This document shows positions 3,360-38,850 of a DNA stretch of 38,920 nt, piece by piece. The stretch comes from Caloramator sp. Lineage in GTDB: Bacteria; Bacillota; Clostridia; Clostridiales; Caloramatoraceae. The position numbers were made by a program, and so were the translations under genes. Every line of letters starts with the position of its first letter. Within the stretch, counting starts at the first letter, position 1. Below the pieces are notes generated by a model. It was not told where the DNA came from and did not search any database. It saw nothing but the letters and a program-made list of their open reading frames with translations. The stretch is from contig JAOAAJ010000051.1 of the NCBI GenBank assembly GCA_026418935.1, positions 1-38,920 of the forward strand, written 5' to 3'.

Positions 3360-4832
3360 TACAAGTCTATTTGCCATCTCTAAAAGCTCATTTGAAAGCC
3401 TCTTTGCATTTTCTGCTTGATTAATATGTTCTCTTGACATTGCAGCTGCCTCTTCAGAATTTGCCATAGTCTCCTGTGATACTGCTGCTATGTTTTCTCC
3501 TGCATTTGCTATTCTATTCATTCCTGCTATTACATTTTCCATCATTCTATTTAACATATTTGTCTTTTCCCTAATGTCAGATACATTTAAATTAATCTTT
3601 CCAAACATACTGCTTACTTCTTCTACGAGCTTTTGTTGTTTTTCATTTATCCTAATGAGCTCTGCAACCGCCTTTACTGATGTTATTGTCTCATTTTGGA
3701 GTTCATTTATTATATTTGCTATGTTATCTGAATTGTTTTTGCTCTCAAGTGCAAGCTTCTTAATTTCATCTGCTACTACTGCAAATCCACGTCCTGCTTC
3801 TCCAACTCTTGCCGCCTCTATTGCTGCATTTAATGCAAGAAGATTTGTCTGCTCTGCAATCTGTGCAATAACACCAGTTATATTTACAATGTCATCTGAC
3901 TTTGTTTTAAGTGCATCCATTGTATGGCTTACGCTAACGTTTTTATCCTTAACTTCTTCTGCCATATTTGACAGGTCATTTATTATTGCTTGTCCATTTT
4001 GCACTATTGCTGTTGTTGCCTCTGTTGCCTCTTTAATTTCAGATGATGCCTTTGATGTACTTTCAACCTCTTGTCTAATTGAATCTATTGCATTATTGGC
4101 ATCCTGTATTTCCTCTGCAGTATTTGATGCTCCGTGGGCAATTTCTTCTACTGCGTTAGAAAATGCCATTGTTGATGATGCTATTTCATCTATTATGTTA
4201 TTTAATTCATTAGAATTGCTCTTTACTAAATTTGCAATTTCAATTAAATTTTCAATTGCCTTTCTTGCATCTTTTTCTTTATTCTCAAGCTCAGCTAAAT
4301 TTGCTAACGTTTGCTTTCTTAAATTTCTTGTTACTCTAACTATAGTAAAGGTTGCTGGAATATACATTAAAACTGTTCCTGACATTAAAGCATAGTTTGA
4401 AGTATCAAGGCTTGTTGTTGCACCAGCTTGAATTCTTAAATATATAAATAGACCAATTGTGATAAAGGCAACTATATTTTGAATTGTCGTTAACATCCAG
4501 TCTGCATAAAGTGTATATGTAACAGCATATGGGAAAAAGAAAATAAAAGTCATTGCTTTTTCAGAAGTTAAAAGAGTTATTATATATGGGATACCATAAC
4601 TTATCATTAATATCCATTTAATTTTTGTTGAGTCGTTTTTCTTGTTATATACCACATATGACAATATAAGTCCTGCAAATGCAACTGCTAAAATTGGGAC
4701 TATAAAAGTGAGCGTTCTGTTGCCCTTCATATACTCGCCTGCAAAGCCTAATGCAAAAATAACAAAAATTAGAACGTGGATTTGTAATACTCTTTTGTTG
4801 ATCATTTTTAGTTCTCTTTCGATAATACCCAT
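3357..4832 (-). CDS. Methyl-accepting chemotaxis protein with a six-helix membrane sensor
   Basis: This is a 491-residue receptor. Residues about 14-168 hold six hydrophobic segments with very short loops, so there is no extracellular ligand domain. A coiled coil begins near 175 and the cytoplasmic signalling tip spans about 324-356, with [17 protein letters not shown] and [10 protein letters not shown]. No HAMP domain is evident between the last helix and the coiled coil. Such integral-membrane sensors may detect membrane or energy state, but this is inference. ATG at 4832 follows AAAGGGGAAAGGTAG. The promoter upstream matches sigma-D spacing, as expected for a motility regulon gene. The gene ends directly in its own terminator. 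Confidence 0.93.
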
Positions 4833-4871
4833 CTACCTTTCCCCTTTCTTGAACTAAGTAGTCTAATTATT

Positions 4872-4898
4872 ATATCGTATGAATTTTGGAAAACTTTA
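4872..4898 (-). promoter_or_regulatory. Sigma-D (sigma-28) type motility promoter for the chemoreceptor
   Basis: On the minus strand TAAA (4898-4895) is followed after 17 nt by CGATAT (4877-4872). The Bacillus sigma-D consensus TAAA-N15-GCCGATAT has the same TAAA to CGATAT distance; only the GC before CGATAT differs (TA here). An overlapping TATAAT has no good -35 partner, which favours the sigma-D reading. Confidence 0.6.
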
Positions 4899-33870: not shown

Positions 33871-34971
33871 TTATTTTATATTTAACTTTCCAAGCTCCCC
33901 AAAATCCTCCTTCATCTTATCAAATAGTTCTTCTCTTACAAAAAACTTATATATTTCATCAGCCTTTTCCTTTATATTAATATCATTAAACCTTTCAGGA
34001 TAAACTGTCTTTCCTATAAAGTAGGCATCAACTAAGGCTGTGTCTATATTGGTGCTGTAAAAATTATAGGGTAGCTGTGAATATACATTTCCTTCTTTAA
34101 ATGCCTTAAGCGAATCATAGAATTTTGGGTTTTTGCCGTAATCCTGCTTAACTATTTCAAGTCCACCTAAGTCGATAAACATTATATCTGGGTTCCACTC
34201 AACTAATTTTTCTTTATCTATCATAACACTTCCTGTTTTTCCCGTTTCATCTGCAACGTTTTTAATATTTAATACAGTAAAGAGAGAATAGTTTCCCTGA
34301 GTACTTTCTATACCGTGCATTCCCTTCATTCCAAGGGCCCCTATATAAACAGAAGGTTTATTTTCATCCTTTAAGTCTCTTGTTCTTTTTTCTAAATCCT
34401 TCTTTACTCCTTCTATAAAATCTACCACTTCCTTTGCTCTTTCTTCTTTATTAACCACTTTACCAATTAATTTTAAAGATTCATTAACTGCATTGTCAAA
34501 GAGAGATACTTTCCCATAGCTTATTGCTACAACTGGAATACCTGTTTTACTCTGCAGATTATCTGCCTCCATCTTATCCTTTGTATAGGTTGTAAAAATC
34601 ACATCAGGTTTAACTGATATAATTTTTTCTGCATCTGGTGGATTATTTGATCCTCCAAGCCCAACTGTAGGTAACTCTAAAAGCTCATTATTTGCTATAA
34701 TATATGGTCTTCCTTTTGCGTTCTTCTTTTCAAACTCTTCAATTCCAACAATTTTGTCTTTACCTGCTATGTATGTATAGAGCCTTAATGCTCCTGGTCC
34801 TATTGCTACAACCCTTTCAACATTCTCCTTAATCTTTACTTCTCTTCCAAGTAAGTCTGTAACTACTATTTCCCTTTGACTAGTCTTTAATTCTTTGCTT
34901 TTACAACCTATCATAAACATAGATAAAAACAGCATTAAAATAGACATATATACTGCTAATCTTTTTCTCAT
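33871..34971 (-). CDS. FecB/BtuF-type substrate-binding lipoprotein
   Basis: The 366-residue product has a lipoprotein signal with lipobox MIGC (Cys23) and a class III periplasmic-binding fold: VVTDLLGREVKI, ERVVAIGPGALRLYTYIAGKDKIVG, KPDVIFTT and WNPDIMFIDLGG. Such proteins bind siderophore-iron, haem, cobalamin, or metal oxyanions. It is the last gene of an operon with FecCD- and FecE-type genes and an FmdE protein, which in my view makes a metal or metal-cofactor ligand more likely than a siderophore. ATG 34971 follows GGAGGGATTAAA, 13 bp after the ATPase gene. Confidence 0.9.
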   Translation of the reverse strand: MRKRLAVYMSILMLFLSMFMIGCKSKELKTSQREIVVTDLLGREVKIKENVERVVAIGPGALRLYTYIAGKDKIVGIEEFEKKNAKGRPYIIANNELLELPTVGLGGSNNPPDAEKIISVKPDVIFTTYTKDKMEADNLQSKTGIPVVAISYGKVSLFDNAVNESLKLIGKVVNKEERAKEVVDFIEGVKKDLEKRTRDLKDENKPSVYIGALGMKGMHGIESTQGNYSLFTVLNIKNVADETGKTGSVMIDKEKLVEWNPDIMFIDLGGLEIVKQDYGKNPKFYDSLKAFKEGNVYSQLPYNFYSTNIDTALVDAYFIGKTVYPERFNDINIKEKADEIYKFFVREELFDKMKEDFGELGKLNIK

Positions 34972-35737: not shown

Positions 35738-36798
35738 CCTCTGTCCTCCTCCTTTATCAAAAGATATAGAAAAAGAGGAGCACCCAAAAATGATGTTATA
35801 ACTCCAACTGGAAGCACAATAGGACTAATTATAGTTCTTGCAATGGTATCTGATAATAAAAGTAGAACTGAACCTAAAATTGTAGAAGTAGGTATTAAAA
35901 ACCTTAAGTCACTTCCTACAATTCTTCTCATTATGTGTGGTGCAATAAGACCAATAAATCCTATAACACCTATAAAGGATACTGCTGTTGCTGTTGCAAA
36001 TGAAACTAATAAAAGACTTCTTAAACGTAACTTTTCTACATCAACACCTAAAGATTTTGCAACATCATCGGAAGCCTCTAATGTATTATAGTCCCATCTA
36101 TGTAAGTAAAAATATACATATGATATTAATGTGGCAGTTGCCATAATTAATACCTCTTTATAGGACACCCTTCCTAAATCTCCAAAGGTCCAAAACACAG
36201 CTGCAGCAACTTGATAGTCCTGTGCAAAATACTGTATGAGAGTTGTAGCTGCCGTAAAAAGTGAACCTAATGCTACACCTGATAAAACTATTGCCTCTTT
36301 ACTAAAAAATTTGAGTTTTGCAAGCTTTATAACAATAAATGTGGCAAATATTGAAAATACAAATGCACAAATATTTACTATATAAGGATTATTTATTATT
36401 ACCGCATCCTTTGTACTACTTTGCGTTGAGCCTGCATCTAAAAGAATTATTGCAACATTTGCACCAAAGGCTGCCGCATTTGAAATACCAAGAGTAAAGG
36501 GAGAAGCAAGGGGATTTTTTAAGTTGTTTTGCATTATACATCCTGATATTGAAAGTGCTGCACCAGCAACAATTGCAGCAAGTATCCTTGGAAGTCTTAT
36601 CCTCCAAAGAATCAAATTTGCATCTTGGTCGTCTATTCCTCTAAAAAATCCAATTAAGTTTATGAGTGTAGCTCTACTTGCACCTAAATTTAAAGCTACA
36701 AAAGACAGTATAAATAAAATTAAAAGTAGAGCTATAAATACATATTTTTTTCTGCCTACATACCTTTTGTACATAATATCTGCCTGCATTGTTACCAT
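35734..36798 (-). CDS. FecCD-family ABC importer permease
   Basis: The protein has up to 354 residues and about ten helices. It carries FecCD hallmarks: ILWRIRLPRILAAIVAGAALSISG, NPLASPFTLGISNAAAFGA, GVIGFIGLIAPHIMRRIVG and ITSFLGAPLFLYLL. Two such subunits would form a type II importer with the ATPase. The start could be ATG 36798, which overlaps the FmdE stop and has no spaced ribosome-binding site, or ATG 36789, which has GAGG nine bases upstream; I lean to 36789. Tight overlap on both sides indicates a single transcript. Confidence 0.92.
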   Translation of the reverse strand: MVTMQADIMYKRYVGRKKYVFIALLLILFILSFVALNLGASRATLINLIGFFRGIDDQDANLILWRIRLPRILAAIVAGAALSISGCIMQNNLKNPLASPFTLGISNAAAFGANVAIILLDAGSTQSSTKDAVIINNPYIVNICAFVFSIFATFIVIKLAKLKFFSKEAIVLSGVALGSLFTAATTLIQYFAQDYQVAAAVFWTFGDLGRVSYKEVLIMATATLISYVYFYLHRWDYNTLEASDDVAKSLGVDVEKLRLRSLLLVSFATATAVSFIGVIGFIGLIAPHIMRRIVGSDLRFLIPTSTILGSVLLLLSDTIARTIISPIVLPVGVITSFLGAPLFLYLLIKEEDRG

Positions 36799-37316
36799 CC
36801 TCTTGTATATTCTTTAAAGCAATCTAAACAAACCATCTTACCATTTTGAACTCTTATCCTGTGTTCTGCTGCAGCCTCTCCACATTCCTCACATACTATA
36901 CTGTTAAAAATTCTTGCCGTTTCAGGCAATTTCACACTTAAAGGCTTTACTTCAAATACATAATCTTCTTTTGCCTCTAAAATATATTGTTTTCTTTCCT
37001 CCCTTGACATTTCTTTATTTGAAGGTTTTAATACTACCCTTATTCCTTCTCCTGTATTTCTTTTAATAAATGAAAAGGCCATTTTACCTCTGTCTTTAAA
37101 TATTAAATTGCCCTTTCCCATTGTACATCCTGTTATAACCTGCACAGCATCTACACCACAAGCATCATTTTCTGTTATGCATACAACCTCCTCATCCTTG
37201 GAAAAAGTTAAACTAAGTTTTTCTACTGCAATTTCACAGGCTCTAAAACCTATTGCAAGCCCTGGACACTCATGTCCATGAAATTCAACGCATTTTTTCC
37301 ATAGCTCTTTATTCAT
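36792..37316 (-). CDS. FmdE-domain protein with C-terminal zinc ribbon
   Basis: The 174-residue protein has the FmdE (PF02663) metal-site motif FHGHECPGLAIG (His13, His15, Cys17), a conserved ENDACGVDAVQVITGCTMGKGN block, and a C-terminal four-cysteine zinc ribbon (about Cys142, 145, 163, 166). FmdE was first named as a gene beside molybdenum formylmethanofuran dehydrogenase, but its biochemical role is not settled. Stand-alone bacterial members like this one lack a partner dehydrogenase. Here it heads an operon with FecCD, FecE and FecB-type genes, so handling of an imported metal or metal cofactor is the best inference. ATG 37316 follows TTAGGAGGTTGAATT. Confidence 0.88.
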   Translation of the reverse strand: MNKELWKKCVEFHGHECPGLAIGFRACEIAVEKLSLTFSKDEEVVCITENDACGVDAVQVITGCTMGKGNLIFKDRGKMAFSFIKRNTGEGIRVVLKPSNKEMSREERKQYILEAKEDYVFEVKPLSVKLPETARIFNSIVCEECGEAAAEHRIRVQNGKMVCLDCFKEYTRGW

Positions 37317-37361: not shown

Positions 37362-37397
37362 AAAAATAACCCACGAAGGTTAACCCTTCGTGGGTTT
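37362..37397 (-). terminator. Leader terminator hairpin before the FmdE operon
   Basis: AACCCACGAAGG (37368-37379) and CCTTCGTGGGTT (37385-37396) form a perfect 12-bp stem with a 5-nt loop. On the minus strand it is followed by ATTTTTTG. It lies between the promoter at 37448-37476 and the FmdE start, so it is placed as an attenuator rather than as the end of the previous gene. Confidence 0.75.
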
Positions 37398-37441
37398 AGT
37401 TCTATTTATTAAAAGATTACCTATTTGGAACTTCGTGTTCC
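37362..37441 (-). ncRNA. Attenuator-like 5' leader RNA of the FmdE/ABC operon
   Basis: The predicted transcript starts near 37441 and runs about 80 nt to the terminator. It opens with a hairpin GGAAC-ACGAA-GTTCC (37441-37427), and after an AU-rich linker the terminator stem follows. CACGAAG occurs both in the first hairpin and in the terminator's 5' arm, so the terminator's 3' arm could pair with either. I do not recognise a known riboswitch class. The gap from terminator to start codon has no strong promoter. Confidence 0.45.
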
Positions 37442-37447
37442 ACTTTT

Positions 37448-37476
37448 ATGTTAACAAAATATATTATTTTAGTCAA
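37448..37476 (-). promoter_or_regulatory. Promoter of the FmdE/ABC operon
   Basis: On the minus strand TTGACT (37476-37471), a 17-nt spacer and TAACAT (37453-37448) precede the leader. The initiation site would fall near 37441, right at the first leader hairpin. Confidence 0.6.
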
Positions 37477-37533: not shown

Positions 37534-37560
37534 AGATTGGGCAATTTCACTAAACCAATC
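37534..37560 (-). terminator. Weak terminator after the DUF1287 gene
   Basis: GATTGG (37560-37555) pairs with CCAATC (37540-37535) on the minus strand across a 14-nt loop, followed by TAATTTTC. The stem starts at the stop codon. The short stem makes efficient termination doubtful. Confidence 0.4.
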
Positions 37561-38284
37561 AATCTACTTTAGGAAACCTGTAATGCCCTATTATTTTTGG
37601 ATACCATAATAAAAAATCATCCGCCTCCACTGCATAGGGACCTGCATTGTGAATTAAATAAGGAATTCCATCTCTTCTTCGTTTATCAGATAAAATACCT
37701 ATATGACCCGGATTTTTAAAAACAACAATATCCCCACCCTGCCACTGTTTCAAATTTTCTTTGTCATAGGGTTTTAATACTAATGTTAGTGAAGTTGCAT
37801 GCCTTTTGAAAAAAACATCTAAATTAGGAACTCTTCTAAAATCAATATTAGGGTCTGGTTTACCATTGACTCTTGGATATAATCTTACATTATTTCTGAT
37901 ATCTTTATCTACCATCTCTTTTAAGTCATATCCTGCATTTTTAAAGGCCCTCCATATTACATCTGTACATACACCCTCTGTCTCTGGAGGATAGCCTCCT
38001 TGGTAATAGGCACTTTTATAGATAGGTCTTCTTTGAGCTTCAAGCCTTCCACCCTCTACTATATCATCTAAATCATATATACCATCGTTGTCTTTATCTA
38101 CAGGAATAACAATCTTTTCTACATCAACAGTTTTTAAAATTGGTATATTATCTAAAATATTATTATCTACAATATTTTTAGGTATAATTTCTGCTACTTT
38201 AAAATCTAAAGAGTATTTGTTAAATACTAAAATACTTATTAATACAATAATTAAAATATATACTACTTTAATTCCCTTTTTCAT
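37559..38284 (-). CDS. Membrane-anchored DUF1287 protein
   Basis: The 241-residue protein has one N-terminal hydrophobic segment (about residues 6-22), then an extracellular linker. A calcium-loop-like DKDNDGIYDLDD segment follows near residue 65. The DUF1287 (YijF-like) domain has GVCTDVIWRAF with a candidate cysteine nucleophile, GGDIVVFKNPGHIGILSD with a candidate histidine, and IGHYRFPK at the end. The Cys-His layout resembles NlpC/P60-like hydrolases, so cell-wall or peptide hydrolysis is possible, but no DUF1287 activity is known to me. ATG 38284 is preferred; GGAGTG lies upstream, and an in-frame GTG at 38293 is part of that site. It is a single gene with a TATAAT-like box about 45 bp upstream. 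Confidence 0.82.
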   Translation of the reverse strand: MKKGIKVVYILIIVLISILVFNKYSLDFKVAEIIPKNIVDNNILDNIPILKTVDVEKIVIPVDKDNDGIYDLDDIVEGGRLEAQRRPIYKSAYYQGGYPPETEGVCTDVIWRAFKNAGYDLKEMVDKDIRNNVRLYPRVNGKPDPNIDFRRVPNLDVFFKRHATSLTLVLKPYDKENLKQWQGGDIVVFKNPGHIGILSDKRRRDGIPYLIHNAGPYAVEADDFLLWYPKIIGHYRFPKVD

Positions 38285-38372
38285 ATAATTCACTCCATTT
38301 ACATATGTTTCTATATTATTATAGCTATAAATATAAACTTTTAAAATTAAAATATAGTAAAAAAGGTATAAA

Positions 38373-38415
38373 GAATAGGTAACATTTGGTGACTAACACC
38401 AAATGTTACCTATTC
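38373..38415. terminator. Long hairpin terminator after the DUF134 gene
   Basis: A perfect 19-bp stem (38373-38391 with 38397-38415) has loop ACTAA. The DUF134 stop codon (38412-38410) lies in the right arm. On the minus strand TTTATACC and then a T-run follow. Confidence 0.85.
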
Positions 38416-38850
38416 CTCGCACCTACACCACTTTTTACACTTCTCAGCCTTTTTACTGCACATTACCTTATTAGAACCGCACACAGGACACTTTGTTTTA
38501 TCATACTCAACGTTTATATCGTATTCACTACCACAGTCAAAGCATTTAAATTTGCAATGCTTTGTTACAAAATGTCCTCCTCCAATCCTTATTGCCTTTC
38601 CTTCTGTTAAAGCTATTGCTACCTTTTTTCTTGCACTGTCTATTATGTTTTGAAAGGTCTGCCTTGAGACATTCATCCTTTCTGCACAATCCTCCTGATG
38701 CAGTTCTTCAACATCCTTTAATCTCATAGCCTCAAGCTCTTCAACCTTTAAAACAACCTCATCTAAGGAGCATTTTGGAACATTTGAAGGAACAAAATAT
38801 TCCTCTTTAGGTAGATTTTCTACCATTCTGTATTTAGTAGGTCTTGGCAT
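38410..38850 (-). CDS. DUF134 (UPF0251) DNA-binding-like protein
   Basis: The 146-residue protein starts MPRPTKYRMVENLP, a DUF134 hallmark. It has a sigma-70-region-4-like helix-turn-helix (VEELEAMRLKDVEELHQEDC, MNVSRQTFQNIIDSARKKV) and a C-terminal cysteine-rich part (CFDCG, CPVCG, KCKKWC) that looks metal-binding. Family members often lie next to MinD/NBP35-type ATPases or NifX-like proteins, and the partial gene just upstream could be such a partner. ATG 38850 follows GGAGGGTTTT; an in-frame ATG four codons upstream lies before that site. The regulatory target is unknown. Confidence 0.88.
   Translation of the reverse strand: MPRPTKYRMVENLPKEEYFVPSNVPKCSLDEVVLKVEELEAMRLKDVEELHQEDCAERMNVSRQTFQNIIDSARKKVAIALTEGKAIRIGGGHFVTKHCKFKCFDCGSEYDINVEYDKTKCPVCGSNKVMCSKKAEKCKKWCRCEE

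What the first reader, a model, noticed from the sequence alone, without database searches (positions are those of the whole stretch)
37362..37476. Attenuator-like leader RNA before the FmdE/ABC operon
A good promoter is followed within about 60 nt by a strong terminator that lies before, not after, the genes it precedes. The 5' hairpin and the terminator arm share CACGAAG, so alternative pairing is possible. The layout is that of a short riboswitch or protein-dependent attenuator of no class I recognise, upstream of a likely metal importer.
Basis: partly seen in the sequence, partly recalled or inferred. Interest (0 to 1): 0.6.

Follow-up and report, generated by a model that had tools for sequence, protein, structure and literature searches.

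The report
Twin-hairpin nickel-operon attenuator RNA
The short RNA leader in front of this metal-import operon is one member of a widespread, apparently undescribed two-hairpin RNA switch that sits before nickel-uptake genes in many Clostridia-like bacteria and probably decides, by letting a terminator form or not, whether those genes are read.

Summary
On the minus strand a promoter (37476-37448) is followed by a hairpin (P1, 37442-37426) and a strong terminator (37396-37368) that precedes the FmdE/FecCD/ATPase/binding-protein operon. The shared CACGAAG is not mainly a P1/terminator pairing. Both copies are the closed loop (C-ACGAA-G) of twin hairpins, and the second hairpin (P2, 37396-37382) uses the terminator's 5' arm, so P2 and terminator exclude each other. 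The same layout (stem-C-ANGAA-G-stem, two or three copies, P2 inside a terminator, promoter just upstream) recurs before nikABC-type, NikLMQO/CbiM, NicO, FmdE-FecBCD and FmdE-Opp operons in dozens of Bacillota genomes, including a second leader in this genome. P1 shows strong covariation. No Rfam 15 family matches. CbiM operons with a cobalamin riboswitch are separate, sometimes in the same genome, which points to nickel. ANTAR and CsrA are each missing from some genomes that have the leader. DUF3842, usually beside nickel genes, tracks it closely (34/35 against 6/32 genomes) and is the best candidate effector, untested. Most likely a low-nickel factor binds both loops, holds P2 open and prevents termination. 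The RNA element is well supported; effector and direction are inferred.

The parts
37448..37476 (-). Promoter-like TTGACT-17-TAACAT, TG before the second hexamer; predicted start near 37441
   Evidence: equivalent promoter 4-16 nt before P1 in nearly all related leaders that score 9/12 or more
37426..37442 (-). Hairpin P1: TGGAAC-ACGAA-GTTCCA, pentaloop ACGAA at 37436-37432, closing pair C-G
   Evidence: P1 covariation in 37 leaders and in 30 distinct stems
37382..37396 (-). Hairpin P2 (antiterminator form): AACCC-ACGAA-GGGTT, pentaloop ACGAA at 37391-37387; excludes the terminator
   Evidence: predicted as the fold of the transcript before the terminator 3' arm is made
37368..37396 (-). Intrinsic terminator stem-loop (12 bp), T-run at 37367-37358
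   Evidence: terminator form -31.8 against -19.3 kcal/mol for the forced P1+P2 form
36792..37316 (-). FmdE domain plus DksA/TraR-type zinc finger; first gene of the operon
   Evidence: Pfam PF02663 and PF01258
35734..36798 (-). FecCD-family permease
   Evidence: Pfam PF01032
34985..35737 (-). ABC ATPase of the FecE/BtuD type
33871..34971 (-). Substrate-binding protein (Peripla_BP_2)

Best explanation
The leader is a transcription attenuator of a nickel-uptake regulon. Twin hairpins with a C-ANGAA-G loop (P1 free, P2 overlapping an intrinsic terminator) are the recognition sites of a trans-acting factor. Without the factor the terminator, which is more stable, forms and transcription stops (OFF). 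When the factor is active, most simply when nickel is scarce, it binds P1 and then P2, holds P2 folded, blocks the terminator, and the operon is transcribed (ON). Shown here: conserved architecture, covariation, P2/terminator exclusion, association with nickel genes. Inferred: binding by a factor, its nature (best candidate DUF3842, otherwise an unidentified protein), and low nickel as the ON signal.
For: Same layout in Caloramator/Thermobrachium, Clostridium rectalis, Thermohalobacter, Pelotomaculum and others before FmdE. Model searches with R1-R3 find it across many families before FmdE-FecBCD, SBP-FecCD, NikB-like ABC, NikL/CbiM-QO, NicO, ECF-S plus methyltransferase and CobN-like genes. 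P1 paired 96% against 62% with shuffled arms, 0 of 2000; five of six P1 pairs have changes on both sides and the covariation score is 0.514 against 0.225 +/- 0.013 shuffled and 0.05-0.13 when slid. Independent of any RNA model, the motif is visible before most CbiM-PDGLE genes fetched by protein search and about half of the FmdE genes. In a second leader of this genome and one of C. rectalis the terminator uses the 3' arm of P2 instead of its 5' arm, yet P2 and terminator still exclude each other. CbiM genes with a cobalamin riboswitch are different copies, in the same genome in several cases, so nickel rather than cobalt. DUF3842 is present in 34/35 leader-bearing and 6/32 other genomes (four of those six do carry the leader on inspection), better than CbiM 31/35 against 16/32, and it neighbours hypDE, larBC, CODH and nickel transporters.
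Against: No experiment; no ligand or protein binding was tested. DUF3842 has a plain Rossmann-like predicted fold with no RNA-binding relative found, one leader-bearing genome (G139) lacks a match, and co-occurrence is confounded by phylogeny and by nickel use in general. Some leaders seem to have only P2 (L023, L069, L117), so two hairpins are not always needed. Window gene names alone would also fit iron or corrinoid import.
Confidence: 0.62

Rival explanations
1. A true riboswitch: the two ANGAA hairpins bind a nickel ion or a nickel-linked small molecule directly, perhaps by loop-loop contact, with no protein.
For: Only short conserved loops and small hairpins, as in the guanidine-II class; wide distribution; no protein is proven; ANTAR and CsrA are each absent from some genomes with the leader.
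Against: P2 formation excludes the terminator, so ligand binding would switch an importer ON, the wrong sense for nickel. Loop position 2 is free (A, C, G or U) and does not match between loops as kissing would need. Linker length runs from 4 to 80 nt.
Confidence: 0.2
2. An ANTAR-protein target (EutV/NasR type) with altered loops.
For: Same architecture: two small hairpins, the second overlapping the terminator (Ramesh 2012, PMC3369931). Most leader-bearing genomes encode an ANTAR protein (30/33).
Against: Loops are pentaloops A-N-G-A-A, not hexaloops with A1 and G4. Linkers usually exceed the 5-12 nt range that EutV needs. G370, G578 and G500 carry the leader but no ANTAR protein. This genome's ANTAR gene lies beside glutamine synthetase.
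Confidence: 0.06
3. Plain terminator of the upstream DUF1287 gene, with the operon read from a promoter downstream of it.
For: The upstream gene has no obvious terminator of its own; the hairpin also fits a terminator on the plus strand.
Against: Upstream genes differ between relatives while leader and downstream gene stay together. A promoter precedes P1 in 40/47 leaders. No promoter-like site lies between terminator and gene. P1 is conserved and covaries although a terminator does not need it.
Confidence: 0.03
4. The leader responds to another metal or cofactor (cobalt, molybdenum, iron, corrinoid), not nickel.
For: FecCD and CbiM families are shared by several substrates; CobN-like and FmdE genes are in the regulon.
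Against: NikB-like, NikL and NicO members are in the regulon. Separate CbiM copies carry cobalamin riboswitches. The DUF3842 neighbours hypDE, larBC and CODH are nickel-linked.
Confidence: 0.12

Closest known systems
ANTAR dual-hexaloop antiterminators (eutP leader/EutV; nasF/NasR; amiE/AmiR)
   Same: Two small hairpins with identical conserved loops; the second is built from one arm of the intrinsic terminator; binding favours read-through
   Different: Pentaloop ANGAA with C-G closing pair instead of hexaloop A1/G4; linker 4-80 nt; ANTAR protein absent in three leader-bearing genomes; nickel genes instead of ethanolamine, nitrate or amidase genes
Guanidine-II riboswitch (mini-ykkC)
   Same: Two short hairpins with similar loops (ACGR, from memory) and a variable linker
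   Different: No covariance-model match; loop is five bases with a free second position; nickel-import genes
CsrA target hairpins
   Same: Paired hairpin loops of the form ANGRA, tolerant spacing (from memory)
   Different: Mostly GAA, not GGA; CsrA is absent from this genome; transcription terminator overlap
NiCo (czcD) riboswitch and cobalamin riboswitch
   Same: Control of nickel/cobalt-related genes in Bacillota
   Different: Unrelated structure; no Rfam match in the leaders; cobalamin riboswitches sit before other CbiM copies

Membership tests
ANTAR dual-hexaloop target RNA | Two hairpins, the second overlapping the terminator | tested here: met
ANTAR dual-hexaloop target RNA | Six-base loops with A at position 1 and G at position 4 | tested here: not met
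   Loops are ANGAA pentaloops in P1 and P2; definition from PMC3369931
ANTAR dual-hexaloop target RNA | Short linker of about 5-12 nt | tested here: not met
   29 nt between the stems in the window, 4-80 nt overall
ANTAR dual-hexaloop target RNA | ANTAR protein in every genome that has the RNA | tested here: not met
   Missing in G370, G578, G500
Guanidine-II riboswitch | Match to the Rfam covariance model | tested here: not met
   No match at gathering score in the window or in 20 related loci, none up to E 10 at the leader
NiCo riboswitch | Match to the Rfam covariance model | tested here: not met
CsrA-regulated leader | ANGGA loops and a CsrA protein in the genome | tested here: not met
   Loops are mostly ANGAA; no CsrA match in G000
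Intrinsic-terminator attenuator | Promoter, mutually exclusive hairpin and terminator before the start codon | tested here: met
Intrinsic-terminator attenuator | Short and long transcripts that change with a signal | not testable with these tools
   Needs an experiment

The most novel reading that the evidence does not exclude
A new class of nickel-responsive RNA control in Bacillota: a family of twin-hairpin (C-ANGAA-G) antitermination leaders read by a new RNA-binding nickel sensor, with DUF3842, a Rossmann-like protein of unknown function, as that sensor.
Probability: 0.3. Interest if true: 0.9.

Novelty: new variant of a known kind. Interest (0 to 1): 0.74.

Why it matters
It would give many anaerobic Bacillota a nickel regulon controlled at the RNA level. 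It marks nickel importers, including unnamed FmdE/FecBCD and ECF operons, by a recognisable leader, and it suggests a function to test for DUF3842.

Tried and rejected
Rfam at gathering score on window and related loci: no match; low-score E<=10 hits at the leader (His_leader, trpB, rnk_leader) are far below their cut-offs and reflect a generic terminator. ANTAR: loops and co-occurrence do not fit. CsrA: absent in this genome. Loop-loop kissing: position 2 does not match between loops. Many R1 class hits and low-scoring R2/R3 hits are ordinary terminators and were discarded; R1 also matches terminators read backwards. DUF3842 fold comparison: only generic Rossmann-like matches; sequence search of solved structures gave nothing convincing. 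Literature library: nothing on FmdE plus riboswitch, nickel plus antiterminator leaders, or DUF3842; the library holds open-licence papers only.

Full report
WHAT IS IN THE WINDOW. On the minus strand, between the DUF1287 gene (37559-38293) and the FmdE gene (36792-37316), a promoter-like pair TTGACT-17-TAACAT (37476-37448) leads into a hairpin TGGAAC-ACGAA-GTTCCA (P1, 37442-37426) and a 12-bp intrinsic terminator (37396-37368) with a T-run. The fold is far more stable than shuffles (z -5.5). The operon encodes FmdE with a DksA/TraR zinc finger, a FecCD permease, an ATPase and a binding protein. The upstream gene has no clear terminator of its own, so the hairpin may serve it too, but no promoter-like site lies between the terminator and FmdE.

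THE KEY FEATURE. The second CACGAAG is itself the loop of a hairpin: AACCC-ACGAA-GGGTT (P2, 37396-37382). P1 and P2 are twin hairpins with the same closed pentaloop C-ACGAA-G, and P2 shares its 5' arm with the terminator. A transcript ending just after P2 folds as P1+P2; the complete leader prefers P1+terminator (-31.8 against -19.3 kcal/mol). Default is therefore predicted OFF, and anything that holds P2 gives read-through.

CONSERVATION. FmdE relatives fetched by protein similarity show the same layout in Thermobrachium, Caloramator, Clostridium rectalis, a Bacillota MAG, Thermohalobacter and Pelotomaculum, with different upstream genes. Models R1-R3 found it across many families of the class and phylum. 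Many low-scoring hits are ordinary terminators; I kept leaders in which the hairpins can be seen. In 49 compiled leaders the P1 loops are ATGAA 19, ACGAA 10, AAGAA 9, AGGAA 3 and rarer forms; the P2 loops are ATGAA 25, ACGAA 20, AAGAA 4 and rarer forms. The closing pair is C-G in 47 of 48 P1 copies. Stems vary freely with pairing kept: P1 96% paired against 62% for shuffled arms (0 of 2000); P2 74% against 56% (0 of 2000). On the model alignment, five of six P1 pairs have changes on both sides; that alignment leans towards the structure. The motif is also plain in leaders found only through the CbiM protein. Some leaders have three copies (L030, L031, L068, L085); some appear to have only P2 (L023, L069, L117). 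A promoter scoring 9/12 or more lies upstream of P1 in 40 of 47 leaders, mostly 4-16 nt away, against 11% of random 60-mers. So P1 is normally the first thing transcribed.

TWO WAYS TO BUILD THE SAME SWITCH. This genome has a second leader, before an ECF S-component gene (L211 about 4798-4886, minus strand, scored 32.5 bits). There the terminator uses the 3' arm of P2, not the 5' arm. C. rectalis has the same arrangement (L212). P2 and terminator exclude each other in both designs, which is strong evidence that P2 is the antiterminator.

WHICH GENES. Downstream are FmdE-FecBCD, binding protein-FecCD, FmdE followed by an Opp-type ABC transporter (L191, L198, L200), an operon with a NikB-like permease and a CsoR-family protein (L134), NikL/CbiM/CbiQ/CbiO (L135), many CbiM-PDGLE operons, NicO (L130), ECF-S plus methyltransferase, and CobN-like genes. 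In G041, G098, G721 and G137 one CbiM copy has the new leader and another has a cobalamin riboswitch, which separates this regulon from cobalt/B12. Nickel is the best reading.

EFFECTOR. ANTAR proteins work on a similar architecture (PMC3369931, PMC8934654), but loops and linkers differ and three leader-bearing genomes lack ANTAR. CsrA is absent here. DUF3842 is in 34 of 35 leader-bearing genomes and 6 of 32 others in the panel as drawn (Fisher 1e-11, not corrected for phylogeny). On inspection four of those six (G137, G316, G407, G409) do carry the leader; negatives without DUF3842 were inspected only through model hits and CbiM leaders, so this second look is uneven. CbiM as a control is much weaker (31/35 against 16/32). 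DUF3842 lies beside hypD/hypE, larB/larC, CODH and nickel transporters, and in this genome beside the second leader's gene. These neighbour names (other than the Pfam and NCBIfam calls cited) are my reading of the translations. Its predicted fold (pLDDT 94) is Rossmann-like with no RNA-binding relative found. It may be the factor, or only another nickel gene.

MECHANISM. Shown: conserved twin hairpins, exclusion of the terminator, nickel-gene context. Inferred: a factor active at low nickel binds both loops and prevents termination. The sense follows from the anatomy: the recognised form is the read-through form, and importers should be on when nickel is scarce.

NOVELTY. No Rfam 15 family matches, and the open paper library gave no description. 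It works like an ANTAR leader but is not a member by the tests made. I rate it a new variant of a known kind, with a chance of a new RNA-binding sensor family behind it.

Noticed in passing
L211:4238-4886 (G000:C2, same genome as the window): A second leader of the same kind precedes an ECF S-component gene, convergent with the genome's only DUF3842 gene.
   Followed up: yes
L073/L209 (G706:C8): A P2-type terminator hairpin lies about 450 nt before an iron-hydrogenase-like gene; if regulated by the same factor this could be a nickel-free replacement switched on at low nickel. No P1 seen, so it may be chance.
   Followed up: partly
L172, L174, L175, L177 (genus g243): In this genus the loops are AUGGA or AAGGA instead of ANGAA, in both hairpins or only in P2; a natural variant that could show what the factor reads.
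   Followed up: partly
L131, L192, L212, L117, L123, L134: A class I methyltransferase gene repeatedly follows ECF-S or nickel transporter genes, or stands alone, in this regulon; it might make a nickel-binding small molecule.
   Followed up: no
window 38371-38417: A 20-bp hairpin between the DUF134 and DUF1287 genes, likely the terminator of the DUF134 gene.
   Followed up: no
L133, L082, L083: CobN/magnesium-chelatase-like genes follow single P2-type hairpins; a chelatase in a nickel regulon would be unusual.
   Followed up: no
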